NCBI RefSeq assembly: GCF_014696675.1
Contig: NZ_JACJQN010000001.1
Location: forward strand, 62,001-126,000
Source of the DNA: Phormidium tenue FACHB-1052
Lineage (GTDB): Bacteria; Cyanobacteriota; Cyanobacteriia; Phormidesmidales; Phormidesmidaceae
Direction of reading: 5' to 3'
DNA length: 64,000 bases
A model generated the notes under the pieces. It was not told where the DNA came from. It searched no databases and saw nothing but the letters and a program-made list of their open reading frames with translations. Position numbers and translations under genes: made by a program. Positions 4,512 through 22,331 of the stretch are shown in pieces (the first letter of the stretch is position 1; each line of letters starts with the position of its first letter).

Positions 4512-5070
4512 CGACTTAAAGGCTAGAGCCTACGAGCTAGCCGGAGTAACCACTACCCAGCAGCTCAAAGCTAAATACACGGCGATTGCTCAGCTCAACC
4601 TTCGCCTCAAAGCCTCTTGGCAAGAGGCGATCGTTATTCTAGAAACGAACCCGGTCAGCGATGGCAACCTCGCCAAAACCATCGCCAATCTAAAGGCCGA
4701 GGTTTATGCGCTAGCTCAGGTCACCACAACTCAGCAGCTCAAAACCAAGTACGAACCCCTAAGGGCACTCAACTTCAGCTTCAAAGCGTCTTGGGAAAAG
4801 GCTCTTACCCTCTTAGCCGATCACACACAAGACTTTCAATCCTGGCTGGCCAACCCACCCGAAGAGTACAAAGCCCTGTTTGCCGAGATTGAAACAGTTT
4901 CCGATAGCTTTGACTCCAAGCTGGGGAAGACCAAACAGCTGGGGCAAGAAGCTCGGGCAATGGCCATCAGCCTTGAACACCTAGCTGAGGAGGCCCAAGA
5001 GGATGCAGAGCAGCTACGGCAAGAGGCCGAGATAGCCTACCAGGCCGCTCAACAGGCCAATCTCAACTAG
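4501..5070 (+). CDS. Unknown protein with an internally duplicated domain, paired with the coiled-coil gene
   Basis: This 189-residue protein contains two clear copies of a ~40-residue module. Copy 1 (about residues 4-46) has YELAGVTTTQQLKAKY and LKASWQEAIVIL. Copy 2 (about 63-105) has YALAQVTTTQQLKTKY and FKASWEKALTLL. The pattern LK-x-AY-x-LA-x-VTTTQQLK-x-KY ... N-x-x-x-KASW-x-x-A is helical with a conserved Trp. The C-terminal ~60 residues are a charged Ala/Glu-rich helix (EAQEDAEQLRQEAEIAYQAA) able to form a coiled coil. The start overlaps the end of the previous coiled-coil gene by 11 bp, and the stop lies 13 bp from the convergent ppc stop. The VTTTQQLK repeats suggest a small helical binding module, but no family was recognised. 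Confidence 0.75.
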   Translation: MGINDLKARAYELAGVTTTQQLKAKYTAIAQLNLRLKASWQEAIVILETNPVSDGNLAKTIANLKAEVYALAQVTTTQQLKTKYEPLRALNFSFKASWEKALTLLADHTQDFQSWLANPPEEYKALFAEIETVSDSFDSKLGKTKQLGQEARAMAISLEHLAEEAQEDAEQLRQEAEIAYQAAQQANLN

Positions 5071-13755: not shown

Positions 13756-14313
13756 ATGGAATTACCAGATGAGCAGCCAGTTTTGTATACGGCGCGGTTG
13801 GTGTTGCGACCGTTTGGGCTGGCGGATGTGGCGGCGGTGGTGGCGCTGGCGGGCGATCGCGCTGTTGCTGAATACACCCTCTCGATTCCCCACCCCTACA
13901 GCGAGGCCGATGCGGAGGAGTGGATTAACCAGCGGCCAGCGGCTTGGGCAGAGAAGAAAGCCATTAACTACGCTGTTGTGCTGCCTGACGGCGATCTCTG
14001 CGGTTCGGTGGGGTTGGGCTTATACCCGGCCTACAACATGGCAGAGCTGGGCTATTGGATAGGAAAGCCTTACTGGGGTCAGGGCTATGCAACGGAAGCC
14101 GGGGCCGCTGTTGTGGATTTTGGGTTTAGCACGCTGGGGCTGAACCGCATTAATGCCATACGTTTTGGCGACAACCCTGCCTCGGGCCGGGTGCTGGAAA
14201 AGCTGGGCCTGGTGCAGGAGGGCTATCGGCGGCGGCAAACGCCGAAGTGGGGCGTGTATCGCGATGTGGTTCTCTACGGTCTGCTGCGCGAGGATTGGGA
14301 AGTAGGAGGTTGA
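13756..14313 (+). CDS. GNAT family N-acetyltransferase (RimJ/RimL-like)
   Basis: This 185-residue enzyme of the GNAT fold, RimJ/RimL branch, is expected to move an acetyl group from acetyl-CoA to an amine. It opens with TARLVLRPFGLADVAAVVAL. It carries the core WAEKKAINYAVVLPDGDLCGSVGLGL, the GYWIGKPYWGQGYATEA acetyl-CoA loop (Q/RxxGxG/A type), and the RINAIRFGDNPASGRVLEKLG block, in which Asn and the ExxG element are typical. The C-terminus YRDVVLYGLLREDW is normal for the family. Its stop is followed after 1 bp by the DUF2442 gene, so the two are probably co-transcribed. The substrate is unknown. Confidence 0.9.
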   Translation: MELPDEQPVLYTARLVLRPFGLADVAAVVALAGDRAVAEYTLSIPHPYSEADAEEWINQRPAAWAEKKAINYAVVLPDGDLCGSVGLGLYPAYNMAELGYWIGKPYWGQGYATEAGAAVVDFGFSTLGLNRINAIRFGDNPASGRVLEKLGLVQEGYRRRQTPKWGVYRDVVLYGLLREDWEVGG

Positions 14314-16186: not shown

Positions 16187-18901
16187 CTATTGTGTCGGAT
16201 CCCAGGGGCCGATCGCAGGTTCGCCGCGCTGTTCTTTGGCGGCTACCTCTAGGTTGAGGGCGAGGAGTTTTTCGAGGAGGTCGTCGGTGGGGTCAAAGCC
16301 GTAGGCTTGCAGCACCAGGGCGTCGAGCTGTTTGTGGAGTTTGTAGAGCTGGCTGACGGGTTCGTGGAAGTAGGCGTTGTAGAGTTTGGTAATGCCCCAC
16401 TGTTTTTGCTGCATTTGGTCGCTGCGGTATTGGTGCAGTTCGATCGCTTTAGTGCGGATTTGCTGAATAGTTTTGGCGCTGGGGGCCTGCGGAAACGGGA
16501 AGGTTTCAAAGCAGGTGCGTGGAGTATAACGAGTATCTCCCTTTAAAGTTGAACTTTGAGCACTTACCCACAAACGATGCATAGAAGATGACAAAATGCC
16601 AAAGATATAAAAATCCTCTGAAGCTACTACCTTAGTTGTATTACCTGGCAACCAAAACAAGGGACAGGGTATGAATATGGCCCATTTTGAAACTTCTGAA
16701 ACCGCAAAAAATTCAGATAAGTTTTCAACAGCAAGTCTCATGGCGGGTCTAACCTTCTCAAACCTCCACCAGGTCACTTGGAGTGCTTGATTTCTATTCT
16801 TGCTTCTCTCTGGTTTTACGACTTGCTTGACATGCTCAAATGGCTCCTTATAAAGAGAGGCATCCTCTAAGGACATTTCACCAAAATCTATAATCCATCT
16901 GTCGGGAGTGCCGTTTACATTCTCCGTTACTTTTGAGCCTGTTAAATAAAGCTTAAGAACATCAGAGTTTTTGGAATTTATTTTTTTCCATTTTTCTGCT
17001 GTATCACTATCAATAACAAAGCCGGATCCGGTAGGTTGTATTCCAACAAAGCTGTAGCCAGAGTTATTTGCTAATAAGCTTGCATAGGATACGTCAACAC
17101 TTGACTTTAGTGATGAACTAATGTATCTAACTGGCATGTTGTCAAGAAAATTTTGCTCGGACTCTTGCTTGTTCCAATTCACAATGCTGACATGGACTTT
17201 TGCTTGGCCAGACCAAGGCTGTGTTGAAATGGCCTCATGGATATGGCCTCCATTCTGGACAACATAGTCAAGCGCTGCAATTCGGCTTTTGCCTTGACTA
17301 ACTGAGTTTGTTCCAACTAGGCCTACTCTGCTATTTTCTTGAATATGGTCATGAGCTAAGCGAAACCAGTAAGCGCAAAAATCTACTGAATCCTTTACGT
17401 CTGGAAATTTCTGGAAAACGCGATCTATATATTCATCACCTATTGCAAGTCGCATGTACTTTCCACCCAAGAAAGGGGGATTCCCGATGATCGCATCCGC
17501 CTTGGGCCACTCGGTAAACAGAGCATCTTGGCAGACAATATTCTTATCTAGCGTATCTAACGGCAGGGCGGGTTCATAGTCTTGCAACCCCAGGCGATCG
17601 ATCGCCACCTTTCGCGCAATCATCAGCGTTACCCGTGCCAGCTCCACCGCAAACGGGTTGTTGTCGATGCCATAAAATTGCAGCGGCGTCACAAAGCCCA
17701 TTTGAATTTGAGCACGGGGCGACTTGCGGCGGCTAGCGATTTTATCTAGCAGCGTTTGCTCAATTTGCTTTAGCTCTTGGTAAGCAATGTAGAGAAAGTT
17801 GCCCGACCCACAGGCCGGGTCTAGCACCCGGTAGGTTTGCAGCTCTAGCTGTAGCGCCTCTAGCTCAGGAATCGTGTTTGCCTGGTCAATGCGCTCTTCC
17901 CAATAGCGTGAGATAGTGGGCCGCACAATTTTCATAATGTCGGCCTCGGCAGTGTAGTGAATGCCGTGGGCATGGCGCGTTTTAGCATCGATCGCCGACT
18001 CAAAAATGCTGCCAAAGATAGCCGGGCGCACCTTGCTCCAATTCTCCAGCGCCGCCACCTCCAGCAGCTTTAGCTCTGGGTGCGTTAGGTCAATAGGGTC
18101 AATATGGGCAAACAGGCCACCGTTAAAATAATCGACCCCCTTAAATCGCCCAGCGGGGGTAATGCCAGGGGCATTCATAGCGCTAAACAGGTTGCCCAGC
18201 ACATCGTAGCTGCTCTCGCCCCCCAGACAGTCTTGCACCGACTGCACAAACAGACTGTCAGGCAGCAGGGCGCGGTCTTCGGCAAACATAGCCAGCACGC
18301 TTTGCAGCACAAACCGCTGGGCCACCATATCCGGCTGGTCAAAATCTCCCTGGCGGGTAAGGCGATCGCGCAGCATGGCATACAGCTCGCCCATACGTCC
18401 GGCGGCTTTTTCGGTGACTTCTACCTGGTTGTTGCCAAACACCGACTTGCGCACAGTGACTTCCATAAAGCCAAAGACAGCAGTGCGATCGGGCAAATCG
18501 GCTAGAGCTACGGTATCAATCGGCGTATCGATCTGAGTGTCGAAGTCGTAGACCCAAAACTCATCAAAATTGCACAGCAGCACATAGCGGGGGCGATCGG
18601 GCACCGCCCGCTGCCAGTAGTCAAAGGCTTGAGAGTAGTGCTTGCTGAGGTCGGCCCCGCGCTTTTTCATCTCGATTAGCACGCGGGGCTTCCAGACCAG
18701 GTCGGCGTAGCCGGTTTTGCCCTTTTTGCTGCCCTTAGCAATGCGCTCTTCGTAGACTGCGCCCGCTTCTACGGCCCCCTCATGACCAAAGGCACGAAAG
18801 AACTTGTCGAGAAAGATCTGCGACTCGCCTTTTTCGTCGCCCTTGAGGTGTGCTTGCACAAACTGGGCGAACTCTTGCAGGCGCTGAGCAGTGGTGGACA
18901 T
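16187..18901 (-). CDS. MmeI-like single-chain restriction-modification enzyme (Type IIL/IIG)
   Basis: This 904-residue protein combines nuclease, adenine methyltransferase and DNA recognition in one chain, close in length to MmeI. Residues 65-79 (YADLVWKPRVLIEMK) supply Asp67-x9-Glu77-x-Lys79, a PD-(D/E)xK nuclease centre with the same spacing as in MmeI. A helical linker follows. SAM motif I is DPACGSGNFL at 361-370, and the catalytic motif IV is NPPF at 474-477, so it should make N6-methyladenine. From about residue 480 to 800 the DNA is visibly more AT-rich (about 16,520-17,480), the part expected to hold the target recognition domain. The ATG at 18901 was preferred over an upstream TTG because the family N-terminus begins there. 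No separate methylase or specificity gene is nearby, consistent with a stand-alone enzyme defending against foreign DNA. Confidence 0.9.
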   Translation of the reverse strand: MSTTAQRLQEFAQFVQAHLKGDEKGESQIFLDKFFRAFGHEGAVEAGAVYEERIAKGSKKGKTGYADLVWKPRVLIEMKKRGADLSKHYSQAFDYWQRAVPDRPRYVLLCNFDEFWVYDFDTQIDTPIDTVALADLPDRTAVFGFMEVTVRKSVFGNNQVEVTEKAAGRMGELYAMLRDRLTRQGDFDQPDMVAQRFVLQSVLAMFAEDRALLPDSLFVQSVQDCLGGESSYDVLGNLFSAMNAPGITPAGRFKGVDYFNGGLFAHIDPIDLTHPELKLLEVAALENWSKVRPAIFGSIFESAIDAKTRHAHGIHYTAEADIMKIVRPTISRYWEERIDQANTIPELEALQLELQTYRVLDPACGSGNFLYIAYQELKQIEQTLLDKIASRRKSPRAQIQMGFVTPLQFYGIDNNPFAVELARVTLMIARKVAIDRLGLQDYEPALPLDTLDKNIVCQDALFTEWPKADAIIGNPPFLGGKYMRLAIGDEYIDRVFQKFPDVKDSVDFCAYWFRLAHDHIQENSRVGLVGTNSVSQGKSRIAALDYVVQNGGHIHEAISTQPWSGQAKVHVSIVNWNKQESEQNFLDNMPVRYISSSLKSSVDVSYASLLANNSGYSFVGIQPTGSGFVIDSDTAEKWKKINSKNSDVLKLYLTGSKVTENVNGTPDRWIIDFGEMSLEDASLYKEPFEHVKQVVKPERSKNRNQALQVTWWRFEKVRPAMRLAVENLSEFFAVSEVSKWAIFIPCPLFWLPGNTTKVVASEDFYIFGILSSSMHRLWVSAQSSTLKGDTRYTPRTCFETFPFPQAPSAKTIQQIRTKAIELHQYRSDQMQQKQWGITKLYNAYFHEPVSQLYKLHKQLDALVLQAYGFDPTDDLLEKLLALNLEVAAKEQRGEPAIGPWDPTQ

Positions 18902-19235
18902 GGGAGAGCTACGACCTTGGCAATGATCAGCGGAACAGGGGGTATTTTCTTTCCTCAAACCTTAGCCATAGATCCCGGATGCCTTTGGGTTTTGACCAAA
19001 ACCTTAACGATGCATGAAACCAGACGGCTAGTGCTCTCTCAAGTCTAGGTTTGCAAGTTGGGTGGCGCGCCAGCAGAACCCAACAAGGCTAACTCGATCT
19101 TGCCAAACTGCTGGGGCGGTAGAGCAGTCAGAGTTTGCAGCAGCTTGGCGCGGTCTATCAAAGCCATGAACCAGCTAGCAAAGGGCAGTCGTCACAATCT
19201 TATCCTCTGCCTTCAGCTTCAGAATGCGAGATTCC

Positions 19236-19424
19236 GAGGGATTTACTCCAGGTTTCGAGTAATTTTCTCGGCACGCCAAGTAGTTTTCTCCAACTGTCGG
19301 GCTGTGTGCCCGAAGCGCTGAGTAATTCTCTCGGCACGCCGAGTGATCTGCTCGAGACTCCGAGTAATTTTCTTGGAATGTCGAGTAATTTACTCGAAAG
19401 GCTGAGTCCTTTTGGTGAAACGTC
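19236..19424. repeat. Degenerate 21-bp tandem repeat array, about nine copies
   Basis: Nine head-to-tail 21-bp units start at 19236, 19257, 19278, 19299, 19320, 19341, 19362, 19383 and 19404. The best copies begin GAGTAATTTTCTCGGCACGCC, and each carries a small dyad GAGT-AATTT-(A)CTC. Several copies are diverged (the unit at 19299 is the most different). Any open frame through the array gives a heptapeptide repeat on both strands. Confidence 0.75.
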
Positions 19425-19521
19425 TTAAAAGCCGACCGTAGGATGAGCATCGCCAGCCCTGTCAAGGTAGCCCGAAAACAGAGGTTTTAGCCCGTCGAAC
19501 TCACCGAAAGCTTGATTATGT

Positions 19522-19720: not shown

Positions 19721-19966
19721 TTACCTAGCCGAAAAATTGTCTGGAATATCTTCAAGTCGCTCAATTCCCAGCTCTTGACCAAGGGCTTTGAGCTGGGCAA
19801 GGCTCAACTTCGCCTCAGTCTTGCCAGCAATCCAGCGCTGGTAAGTGGAGCGGGGTATGCCACAGCGAACCGCCAACTCATCTTGAGTCAGTTTGGTGCG
19901 CTCTAGCCTCAAGACCTCTATGGGGGAGAGCTTTGATTCTGCTGGTAGGGCGCTTTCTTCAGCCAT
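19721..19966 (-). CDS. XRE family transcriptional regulator
   Basis: This 81-residue protein is a single helix-turn-helix of the XRE/Cro class: LRLERTKLTQDELAVRCG, then IPRSTYQRWIAGKTEAKLSLAQL as the recognition-helix region, and LKALGQELGIERLEDIPDNF. There is no effector domain. Palindromic GCCTCA/TGAGGC sites lie just upstream (19992-20036) and are plausible operators for autoregulation. The AAAGCCTCAGA part recurs before the coiled-coil gene at 3768. It could regulate the neighbouring restriction enzyme as a controller protein, but the 800-bp repeat-rich gap weakens that idea. Confidence 0.85.
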   Translation of the reverse strand: MAEESALPAESKLSPIEVLRLERTKLTQDELAVRCGIPRSTYQRWIAGKTEAKLSLAQLKALGQELGIERLEDIPDNFSAR

Positions 19967-19991: not shown

Positions 19992-20036
19992 AAAGCCTCA
20001 GATTGACATATTCAAAATAAAGCCTCAAAATGAGGC
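19992..20036. promoter_or_regulatory. Candidate operator of the XRE gene
   Basis: Two direct copies of AAAGCCTCA lie at 19992-20000 and 20019-20027, 27 bp apart. The second is part of the palindrome GCCTCA-AAA-TGAGGC (20022-20036). They begin 26 bp upstream of the XRE start codon, where autorepression would act. Binding is inferred. Confidence 0.5.
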
Positions 20037-20240: not shown

Positions 20241-20522
20241 ATGTTGCAAGCTCAATCTTTTTTGCCGTCCTACATCCAGGGAACGGCACAGACGCCGCTG
20301 CCGACAATTCCTATAGCTATGGTGCCGCACCGCCGCCTGCGGCACTACCTGGTCGGCTCTCCCGACGACACCCAGCACGCCATCGATCGCCTGCACCTGC
20401 TCGGCTACCTAGAGCGCGTCAGCTGGAGCCATGCGATCGACATCCCCGCTAACGGCCTGATCATTCGCCCCGATGCTGGCGATGTGTTGCGCTACAGCCA
20501 GCGCGATCGGGTGACGGGGTGA
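20241..20522 (+). CDS. Small hypothetical protein flanked by inverted repeats
   Basis: This 93-residue protein was not assigned to a named family. The central region MVPHRRLRHYLVGSPDDTQ, followed by AIDRLHLLGYLERVSWSH, looks like a compact, conserved basic domain that could bind nucleic acid, and GLIIRPDAGDVLRYSQRDR closes the protein. The composition is typical of the host. The gene lies between two perfect inverted copies of a 23-bp palindromic repeat (20189-20211 and 20565-20587), so it might have been moved as a unit or simply lie between repeat insertions. Confidence 0.65.
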   Translation: MLQAQSFLPSYIQGTAQTPLPTIPIAMVPHRRLRHYLVGSPDDTQHAIDRLHLLGYLERVSWSHAIDIPANGLIIRPDAGDVLRYSQRDRVTG

Positions 20523-20618: not shown

Positions 20619-22331
20619 CTAAAACGGCACAGCGGAGTTTAGAAGAACTACATCCTGGCTGTGGGGATGGGCAAATTGTAGCGATTGGGCATGGAGGTGC
20701 AGACGCTGCCCCGGTTCGCTGTAGCCATAGAGGCGATCGCCCCAAATCGGCGCATTCAGCCCCTGGGCCGCATGCACCCGCAGCTGGTGAGTGCGCCCCG
20801 TCAGCGGGTAAAAAGCAATTCGCGTCAGCACTCCCTCTCGGCCCAGCACCTCAAACTTGGTTTGGCTGGGTTTACCGTGCTGCCAATTCACCTGCTGCCG
20901 GGGCCGCTGCGTAGGGTCACCCCACAGCGGCAGGTCAATGATCCCCGACGATTCAAAGACGTGACCCACCGCGATCGCCTGGTAGGTTTTCTGCACCTGG
21001 CGATGCTCAAACTGCTGGCCGAGCTGGCGGTGGGTTTCGGCATCGAGCGCCAGCAACAGCACCCCAGAGGTGTCTTGGTCGAGCCGATGCACGGGTTGCA
21101 AGAACGCTCCCTCGGGTAGGGTCAGGCGCAGGCGGGTAAGCACGCTATCTTGGCGATCGCGGTAGCGACCCGGCACCGACAGCAGCCCCGCCGGTTTATC
21201 CACCGCAATCATCCACGGGTCTTGGTATAGAACGGGAATCCCCAACTCTGGTTGAATGTCCCCAGCTTGTGAGGGTTGTAGGGGCGCAGCATGCTGCGCC
21301 CCTACGGGGAGTTTGGCTGCGCCCAACACCTGGGCCGACAATCCTGACAATAGAAACCCCATAATCGGCTGACAGCGCTCGGCGCAGGCCCTATAAAATT
21401 CACCCGGCTGCTTGTCGCCCTGGGGCGCTCCCCACCAAAACTCAGCCATCGCCAGGGGCACCAGGCCATGCTGAGCCGCCGCGTGCAGCAGCTTAGGGGC
21501 ACAGCAGTCGCCCGTACCGGTGGGCAGATTGCCCTGGGCCGCTAAGTTCTGGATAGCCAAAGATTCGCCCGCAAAGTTGGTGAGGGTATAGGCGGCGTGC
21601 ATCTCAGCCTGGAGCTGGCGGGATAGGGCGCGACGCTGCTGCCTGAGGGCAGCGATTTCCGTATCAGCAGATTGGATAGTGACTTCTAGAGGGGCAAGGC
21701 GATCGCCCCATCGCTGCTTAAACTGCCGCAGCTCGGCCTTATCGCCCCGGCTCTCTTGCTCCAGAGCTGCTAGAGCTTCCGCAAGTGCATCTCCGGTGAG
21801 GTTGCTAGCCAAGGTTTGGCGCTGAAGGTCGCGGGCTTGTTTGCGATCGCGGTGCCTCTGGTTCAACACCTGGCGAGCCTCGGCCTGCTCCTCCTGCAAC
21901 CGACCGTAGGTCTCCCGCTCTGGCAACCGCTGCAATACCAACAGGCGGTCTTTAATCGCCTCCAGCGCATTGAGAGTACGTGCCTCTTGCAGCGCCACCT
22001 CATCCCTTCCTGGTATCGGCGGCACCCAACCGGGCACCCGCTCTCGCCCCTGCCACAGCCCCGAAAACGCCTTGAGCACCCCGGTTTGTCCCTCGGGTGA
22101 CTGCACCACCAGCACCCCAAACATCTTGCCCTCGATGGCGTAAACATCGCCGAGCTGGGTCATGAGGGATTGGGCGATCGCCCGAGCCATTGCTGTGCGG
22201 GGCAATCGGTAGTGCTGCCCCGTGCGAGGGCAGTAGCCCTGGTAGTAGTAATCAGCCAACCCTAGATCAGGCAGCCGCACCCCACCTAAAAAGGCATCGA
22301 GGGTATGAAAAGGTAGGTCAGGCACGGCCAA
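20619..22331 (-). CDS. RluA family RNA pseudouridine synthase with long N-terminal extension
   Basis: This 570-residue enzyme converts uridines in structured RNA to pseudouridine. The RluA catalytic domain occupies the C-terminal ~200 residues. Its opening IPVLYQDPWMIAVDKPAGLLSVPGR is followed by the catalytic HRLDQDTSGVLLLALD (active Asp), then TGRTHQLRVHAA and GDRLYGY. The N-terminal ~370 residues are not needed for the family: they contain a region with YYYQGYCPRTGQHYRLPRTA, a charged coiled coil (about 130-250), and GTGDCCAPKLLHAAAQHGL plus AEFWWGAPQGDKQPGEFY. The frame begins with TTG (22331); a GTG six bases downstream is an alternative. A 28-bp perfect palindrome lies inside the gene. 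The target RNA is unknown. Confidence 0.88.
   Translation of the reverse strand: MAVPDLPFHTLDAFLGGVRLPDLGLADYYYQGYCPRTGQHYRLPRTAMARAIAQSLMTQLGDVYAIEGKMFGVLVVQSPEGQTGVLKAFSGLWQGRERVPGWVPPIPGRDEVALQEARTLNALEAIKDRLLVLQRLPERETYGRLQEEQAEARQVLNQRHRDRKQARDLQRQTLASNLTGDALAEALAALEQESRGDKAELRQFKQRWGDRLAPLEVTIQSADTEIAALRQQRRALSRQLQAEMHAAYTLTNFAGESLAIQNLAAQGNLPTGTGDCCAPKLLHAAAQHGLVPLAMAEFWWGAPQGDKQPGEFYRACAERCQPIMGFLLSGLSAQVLGAAKLPVGAQHAAPLQPSQAGDIQPELGIPVLYQDPWMIAVDKPAGLLSVPGRYRDRQDSVLTRLRLTLPEGAFLQPVHRLDQDTSGVLLLALDAETHRQLGQQFEHRQVQKTYQAIAVGHVFESSGIIDLPLWGDPTQRPRQQVNWQHGKPSQTKFEVLGREGVLTRIAFYPLTGRTHQLRVHAAQGLNAPIWGDRLYGYSEPGQRLHLHAQSLQFAHPHSQDVVLLNSAVPF
21278..21305. repeat. 28-bp perfect palindrome within the pseudouridine synthase gene
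   Basis: GTAGGGGCGCAGCA followed directly by its exact reverse complement makes a 28-bp palindrome at 21278-21305. It encodes VGAQHAAPLQ in the linker ahead of the RluA domain. Such palindromes occur as dispersed repeats in cyanobacteria; here one sits inside a coding region without breaking the frame. Confidence 0.75.

What the first reader, a model, noticed from the sequence alone, without database searches (positions are those of the whole stretch)
19236..19424. Nine-copy 21-bp tandem array with a dyad in each unit
The units keep an exact 21-bp period while drifting in sequence, and most keep GAGT...CTC dyad symmetry. The period is two helical turns, so the dyads face the same side of the DNA. 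This suits a cooperative protein-binding array (an iteron-like or operator array) better than random slippage. Because 21 is a multiple of 3, it also yields heptapeptide repeats in open frames on both strands, which may cause false gene calls. It sits beside a restriction enzyme and an XRE gene.
Basis: partly seen in the sequence, partly recalled or inferred. Interest (0 to 1): 0.6.

Follow-up and report, generated by a model that had tools for sequence, protein, structure and literature searches.

The report
Repeat array before swappable immunity genes
A short stretch of DNA made of nine 21-letter mirror-image repeats is real and does not look like protein-coding DNA; in related cyanobacteria it stays in place in front of immunity genes that differ from strain to strain, most likely as a landing strip for an unknown DNA-binding protein.

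Summary
The array is real: nine 21-bp units at 19233-19421. A second, 18-unit array lies in the same genome before an aminopeptidase gene. In Nodosilinea-type relatives 164 of 169 unit spacings are exactly 21 bp. Between orthologous arrays the dyad core (GAG, TTT, CTC) changes less than other columns and than flanking DNA; differences show no codon periodicity, each frame meets stops in some array, and no consistent compensatory change was seen. So it looks like a constrained, non-coding element.

The setting is the main finding. Of 14 orthologous copies of this locus 13 carry the array; all 12 with a readable left side have a conflict gene beyond it (type IIG RM, TIR, NB-ARC or trypsin-NB-ARC types). 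The one empty site lacks both. Array plus an adjacent box of about 38 bp stay while gene and XRE allele are exchanged. Three XRE classes with different sequences upstream of them share one array consensus, so XRE is a poor candidate binder.

Best reading: a cooperative protein-binding upstream element (0.42). Rivals: minisatellite, recombination joint, leader RNA. Similar arrays elsewhere in cyanobacteria mostly lie between other genes (13 of 16 sampled).

The parts
19233..19421 (+). Nine-unit 21-bp dyad array (genus consensus of a unit about GCCGAGTAATTTTCTCGAAAC)
19195..19232 (+). Box on the gene side of the array (caatcttatcctctgccttcagcttcagaatgcgagat); its last 24-38 bp recur beside site-A arrays that have different genes
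   Evidence: a pattern from it gives 12 places in 26 genus genomes, 10 directly beside an array (nine at site A, one at L209); the window's own box is too diverged to match it
19417..19432 (+). Right edge GAAACGTCTTAAAAGC after the last unit, similar in other site-A alleles
   Evidence: read by eye
16187..18958 (-). Exchangeable conflict gene in this strain: MmeI-like type IIG restriction-methylase; the array lies on its 5' side
19721..19966 (-). Small XRE/HTH_3 gene, class I of three allelic classes
20022..20036 (.). GCCTCATTTTGAGGC dyad upstream of the class I XRE gene, unlike the array unit; not found intact in the three other class I alleles
20241..20522 (+). Conserved 93-aa gene used to find site A in other genomes
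20619..22331 (-). RNA pseudouridine synthase, right flank of site A in many of the strains
13756..14313 (+). 185-aa gene whose 76%-identical relative lies beside XRE at the empty site of genome G011

Best explanation
The array is a non-coding, selected cis-element made of tandem DNA dyads. Half-sites (CGAG / CTCG in the consensus) alternate in orientation every 10-11 bp, so they lie on one face of the helix, one per turn. I infer that a dimeric DNA-binding protein, not yet identified and probably not the adjacent XRE, fills the array cooperatively and controls (probably restrains) transcription of the gene on the box side. At this locus the array and the box form the constant upstream module of a slot in which whole conflict genes are exchanged. 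Shown: spacing, constraint on the core, lack of coding signal, constant array with exchanged flanks, one empty site. Inferred: protein binding, cooperativity, the sign of the regulation.
For: 164 of 169 spacings exactly 21 bp. Orthologous units: core columns 85/726 differences against 172/660 elsewhere, p=7e-12; in the two closest disjoint pairs 5/154 against 20/140 (p=0.0007) and against one flank of each pair 118/1397 (p=0.018). Differences not 3-periodic. In the 12 pairs of unlike alleles with a short gene-side match, homology stops 24-57 bp from the array, within or just beyond the box. Array kept when both gene and XRE class differ: L062 and L068 align over 11 units. Empty site G011 lacks array and conflict gene together. 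The same layout in other lineages: array 5' of MmeI RM (L116; L172, the same locus as L312), NACHT (L213, L295, L299), TIR (L167).
Against: No binding or transcription data. Site B has the same kind of array before a core aminopeptidase gene. Outside Nodosilinea 13 of 16 sampled arrays have no NLR or RM gene as neighbour, and several lie between co-directional housekeeping genes. A homologous RM gene in the same genus (G010) has no array on its 5' side. Not all gene-side breaks fall at the box: window and L211, with unlike genes, share 145 bp, and L068 and L070, with like genes, share 528 bp that stop 142 and 169 bp short of the array. Unit alignment between distant orthologs is uncertain. The last base of the second half-site is G in only 83 of 172 distinct units. 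No known regulator with this motif was identified.
Confidence: 0.42

Rival explanations
1. A member of a dispersed intergenic minisatellite (REP-like) family, spread by slippage and copying, without function here.
For: 20 of 242 class genomes have pattern matches, some of them single chance-like pairs; G509, G467 and G554 have several arrays each, mostly between ordinary genes. Copy number varies from 3 to 18 units. Arrays in several cyanobacteria have a 7-bp sub-period that suggests slippage origin.
Against: In the two closest disjoint pairs core columns diverge less than one flank of each pair. Only two arrays in the window's genome. Position kept in 13 site-A copies. Few indels.
Confidence: 0.24
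2. Recombination joint: the array and its conserved edges are the shared homology by which different conflict genes and XRE alleles are exchanged; it has no regulatory role of its own.
For: In 12 unlike pairs homology on the gene side ends 24-57 bp from the array, and on the XRE side it often ends near the array's other edge; XRE class is shuffled against gene type (L061/L071, L064/L066, L068/L070). L209 carries gene, array and about 190-230 bp of right flank in another setting.
Against: Does not explain the column-specific constraint on the dyad core or the site B array, whose flanking genes are the same in the four genomes seen. Any exchange of one flank leaves a junction somewhere; no excess over chance was measured, and two pairs break elsewhere.
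Confidence: 0.18
3. The array is transcribed with the conflict gene and acts as a leader RNA with a row of short hairpins.
For: It lies on the 5' side of the gene; in L062 and L069 a start codon is 51 bp from the box-side edge of the array, and the ORF coordinates give the same for L209. Transitions that keep a G-U pair on the gene strand outnumber the mirror set, 49 to 27 in the Nodosilinea set and 37 to 24 in the mixed set. In the mixed-phyla set inner pairs 9-11 (p=0.0005) and 7-13 (p=0.027) covary.
Against: Within-array permutation: of 16 pairs in the Nodosilinea set two reach p<0.05 (8-12, 0.029; 16 with column 4 of the next unit, 0.041); the three GAG/CTC pairs within a unit do not; none of 9 pairs does in 13 further arrays. 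The G-U excess is uneven: T15>C (20 cases) against A5>G (3), but G4>A (17) against C16>T (19); many T15>C cases look like one inherited unit. No Rfam match above its family's gathering score.
Confidence: 0.1
4. Operator array of the adjacent XRE protein.
For: An XRE gene of one of three classes lies beside the array in the site-A copies examined.
Against: Three XRE classes share one array consensus; class III differs strongly in the presumed recognition helix, classes I and II in two of its residues (position judged by eye). Classes II and III each have their own dyad upstream, class I a dyad in the window only. XRE without array in G011; array without XRE beside it in L209 and at site B.
Confidence: 0.04
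5. Coding sequence of a heptapeptide-repeat protein.
For: Open frames on both strands in the window; one reverse frame is stop-free in 10 of 16 arrays of the Nodosilinea set.
Against: No frame open in all 16; no 3-periodicity of differences; phase shifts of 1 bp in two arrays; no Pfam match.
Confidence: 0.02

Closest known systems
Operator or iteron arrays (tandem sites for cooperative DNA-binding proteins; recalled)
   Same: Short dyads at a fixed spacing of whole helical turns, upstream of a gene, variable copy number
   Different: No cognate protein known; adjacent XRE unlikely as binder; a role at a replication origin was not examined; units drift strongly
REP/BIME/REPIN palindromic repeats (PMC3116915 and PMC3733652: search listings with start of abstract only)
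   Same: Intergenic, palindromic, repeated elements; dispersed in some cyanobacterial genomes
   Different: Head-to-tail arrays of strict 21-bp period, two per genome in the window's strain, at kept positions in the genus
STRR heptanucleotide repeats of cyanobacteria (recalled)
   Same: Arrays in genus g181 and in L213 show 7-bp sub-periodicity
   Different: Nodosilinea arrays show none (lag 7 identity 0.23, composition 0.255) and keep a dyad
NTP-dependent conflict genes of multicellular prokaryotes (PMC7159879: passages only)
   Same: Modular conflict genes with TIR, trypsin-like and STAND-type parts, as at this locus
   Different: The terms 'intergenic', 'tandem repeat' and 'operator' do not occur in its main text; a constant array upstream is not described in the passages seen

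Membership tests
Operator/iteron array | Fixed spacing compatible with the DNA helix | tested here: met
   164 of 169 gaps under 70 bp are 21 bp
Operator/iteron array | Site letters conserved by selection | tested here: met
   Core 85/726 vs other 172/660 differences; core below one flank of each of two pairs, p=0.018
Operator/iteron array | A cognate protein binds the units | not testable with these tools
   No binding data; XRE made unlikely
Operator/iteron array | Effect on transcription or replication | not testable with these tools
   No expression data held
REP/REPIN family | Many dispersed intergenic copies per genome | tested here: not met
   Two arrays in the window's genome; several per genome in G509, G467 and G554
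REP/REPIN family | Linked RAYT transposase | not tested
   A transposase-like protein was recognised by eye near L209 only
Structured RNA repeat | Compensatory changes in stems | tested here: inconclusive
   None at the GAG/CTC pairs within a unit; scattered low p elsewhere
Coding heptapeptide repeat | Open frame and codon periodicity kept in relatives | tested here: not met
STRR heptanucleotide repeats | 7-bp period | tested here: not met
   Lag 7 identity 0.23 in the Nodosilinea set

The most novel reading that the evidence does not exclude
Array plus box are a genetic socket: a portable control module under which unrelated immunity genes (restriction, TIR, NLR-type) can be plugged in and immediately come under one shared regulator, so that a strain can change its immunity gene without evolving new control.
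Probability: 0.22. Interest if true: 0.75.

Novelty: new variant of a known kind. Interest (0 to 1): 0.52.

Why it matters
How bacteria acquire new immunity genes without harming themselves before control evolves is, to my knowledge, an open question. A constant upstream element that stays while the immunity gene is exchanged gives a concrete, testable case, with one empty site and at least four clearly different gene architectures for comparison. Paper searches for such arrays showed none in their listed titles and abstract starts; they cover only the open-access library.

Tried and rejected
Coding: rejected. XRE operator: judged unlikely. Compensatory base pairs on two possible axes: mostly negative. 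The single window unit with GGGC..GCCC looked like compensation but is one case. Rfam: two matches far below their families' gathering scores. Plasmids with array 2 and phages with the window array: no match. Viral contigs: three two-unit matches only, not followed. Promoter and terminator scan: about chance level.

Immune association as a general rule: weakened, 3 of 16 sampled arrays outside Nodosilinea. The sample was picked by eye from a capped list: 19 places listed, plus one stretch of G333; 16 of the 20 had a lag-21 score of 30 or more. Two Uma2 neighbours (L297, L298), named putative restriction endonuclease by Pfam, and a CHAT gene 930 bp away (L303) were not counted; several neighbours had no Pfam match. 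The binomial values (0.011 for two or more, 0.0009 for three or more) assume about 1% background per array from 14-36 raw NB-ARC plus NACHT matches per genome (overlaps counted twice, gene number assumed) and were made after seeing the data.

RM homologs: of 30 fetched loci four have a 21-bp repeat on the 5' side: L214 (the window itself), L233 (no dyad), L234 and L237 (arrays on both sides); three others (L222, L226, L243) are cut by contig ends on that side. Arrays in Ralstonia, Rhodanobacter, Bacteroidales and Peribacillus were found with a pattern that fixed GAG..CTC and the spacing, so their likeness is partly by selection.

Full report
Observation. The array is nine 21-bp units at 19233-19421. 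Over 168-bp windows it is the strongest repeat of the 64 kb for lags 10-59. Exact GAG-N7-CTC stands in five of nine units.

A second array. The same genome has an 18-unit array about 59 kb away (G000:C1:22108-22485, L012:3109-3486), 180 bp before a M1 aminopeptidase gene with HEAT repeats. All 12 matches of the sequence model R1 in this genome fall in these two arrays. In the genus 16 of 26 genomes have R1 matches, in the family 18 of 63 genomes in 3 of 14 genera.

Period. In 23 arrays (Nodosilinea type and one relative) 164 of 169 spacings under 70 bp are 21; the others are 18, 20, 22, 42 and 42; one array (L212) gave only a gap of 105 and does not count. In 386 genomes of the phylum, a strict pattern with a free gap of 0-30 matched 2 genomes at four places, all at spacing 21 or 42, and not the window's own genome; the reversed control matched other repeats in three genomes.

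Constraint. Nine disjoint pairs of orthologous arrays gave 66 aligned units. Columns 3-7, 10-12 and 14-16 differ in 85 of 726 cells, the rest in 172 of 660 (p=7e-12). The core was chosen after seeing the consensus, and distant pairs may hold misaligned units; the two closest disjoint pairs (L062/L069, L064/L066) still give 5/154 against 20/140 (p=0.0007), and 5/154 against 118/1397 in flanking DNA (p=0.018). The flanks used are the right side of L062/L069 and the left side of L064/L066, the latter partly coding; the left side of L062/L069 (89.3% identity) was not used. Non-core columns change faster than these flanks (p=0.029). Differences by codon position, added up by hand, are 97, 82, 78 (chi-square p=0.31). 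No frame is free of stops in all 16 arrays tested; the best reverse frame is open in 10.

RNA test. Shuffling partners within arrays shows no excess at the three GAG/CTC pairs within a unit. Two of 16 tested pairs reach p<0.05 in the Nodosilinea set: 8-12 (0.029; 0.006 at site B alone) and 16 with column 4 of the next unit (0.041). Two inner pairs do so in the mixed set (0.0005, 0.027), none of nine in 13 further arrays. Transitions compatible with G-U on the gene strand exceed the mirror set 49 to 27 (37 to 24 in the mixed set), but unevenly over columns, and many cases look inherited.

Locus. Using the 93-aa gene at 20241 as anchor, 14 copies with 73% identity or more occur in 13 genomes. 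Thirteen carry the array, of 3 to 13 units; L208 and L211 have only three, the last of L211 weak. One (L067) is cut by its contig end. The other twelve have on the box side, same strand as XRE, a conflict gene: type IIG RM (window), TIR-NB-ARC-TPR (L061, L071), TIR-NB-ARC (L064, reading frame interrupted), TIR (L066; the ORF beyond it was not scanned), TIR with a separate NB-ARC-TPR (L208), NB-ARC (L063), NB-ARC-TPR (L062, L069), trypsin-NB-ARC-TPR (L068, L070), AAA/NB-ARC (L211). A short gene stands between array and NB-ARC gene in L062, L068, L069 and L070. The fourteenth copy, G011, has XRE close to a 76%-identical relative of the 185-aa gene at 13756 of the window, with neither array nor conflict gene between, and G011 has no R1 match. 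So about 5 kb of the window, other genes included, is missing there.

Mosaic. In 12 pairs of unlike alleles the gene-side match ends 24-57 bp from the array; this remainder is the box, in the longest cases with a few bases more. Other unlike pairs gave no such match at E 1e-4 and were compared by eye. Exceptions: window and L211 share 145 bp; L063 shares about 135 bp, away from the array, with four TIR alleles. Pairs with like genes share about 700 bp, except L068/L070, whose 528 shared bp stop 142 and 169 bp short of the array. The box pattern occurs 12 times in 26 genomes, 10 of them directly beside an array: nine at site A and one at L209; three site-A alleles with a readable box side (window, L063, L068) are too diverged to match. 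XRE classes I, II and III (31-95% identity to the window's) occur with different gene types. Class III differs strongly in the presumed recognition helix, I and II in two residues. Upstream, class III genes have CTAGACACATTGTCTAG (5 of 5), class II a TGACGT..ACGTCA dyad (4 of 4), class I a dyad in the window only (1 of 4). L209 in G013 has an NB-ARC gene, array and about 190-230 bp of right flank without XRE; whether it is a moved or a rearranged site A is open.

Elsewhere. With site A that is seven of seven adjacent loci, a count made after the fact; it leaves out L237 (arrays on both sides of an RM gene) and L130 (another ORF between). L072 has a CHAT gene with the array on its 3' side, the exception if CHAT is counted. 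In a sample not chosen by genes, 3 of 16 arrays have NACHT or MmeI neighbours; most others lie between housekeeping genes. So the family is wider than immunity loci.

Mechanism. CGAG and CTCG half-sites alternate every 11 and 10 bp (read from the consensus), one per helical turn on one face. With the constraint and the lack of coding or clear RNA signal, a cooperative DNA-binding protein is the simplest reading; binding and the sign of regulation are inference.

Noticed in passing
window 20241-20522: The 93-aa protein belongs to a small-protein family with up to 16 matches per genome in the genus.
   Followed up: partly
L012:3038-3065 (site B): A palindrome (GATTGACATTGCTTAAGCAATGTCAATC, perfect in L059 and L060, one mismatch in L012 and L058) lies between the second array and the aminopeptidase gene.
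   Followed up: no
L299-L306, L312, L213: 21-bp arrays with a 7-bp sub-period (pooled identity at lags 7 and 14 of 0.43 in genus g181), a higher-order repeat of heptads absent in Nodosilinea.
   Followed up: partly
L233, about 4640-4850: Upstream of another MmeI-like RM gene: a 21-bp repeat of quite different sequence without the GAG..CTC dyad.
   Followed up: no
L121, L162, L177, L179: Ralstonia and relatives carry GCCGAGCTTTTTGCTC-like arrays 13-34 bp after an 899-aa gene; in L121, the one scanned, it is a pyruvate dehydrogenase E1 gene.
   Followed up: no
upstream of XRE genes at site A: Class III XRE genes have CTAGACACATTGTCTAG, class II a TGACGT..ACGTCA dyad: likely their own operators.
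   Followed up: partly
   Followed up: partly
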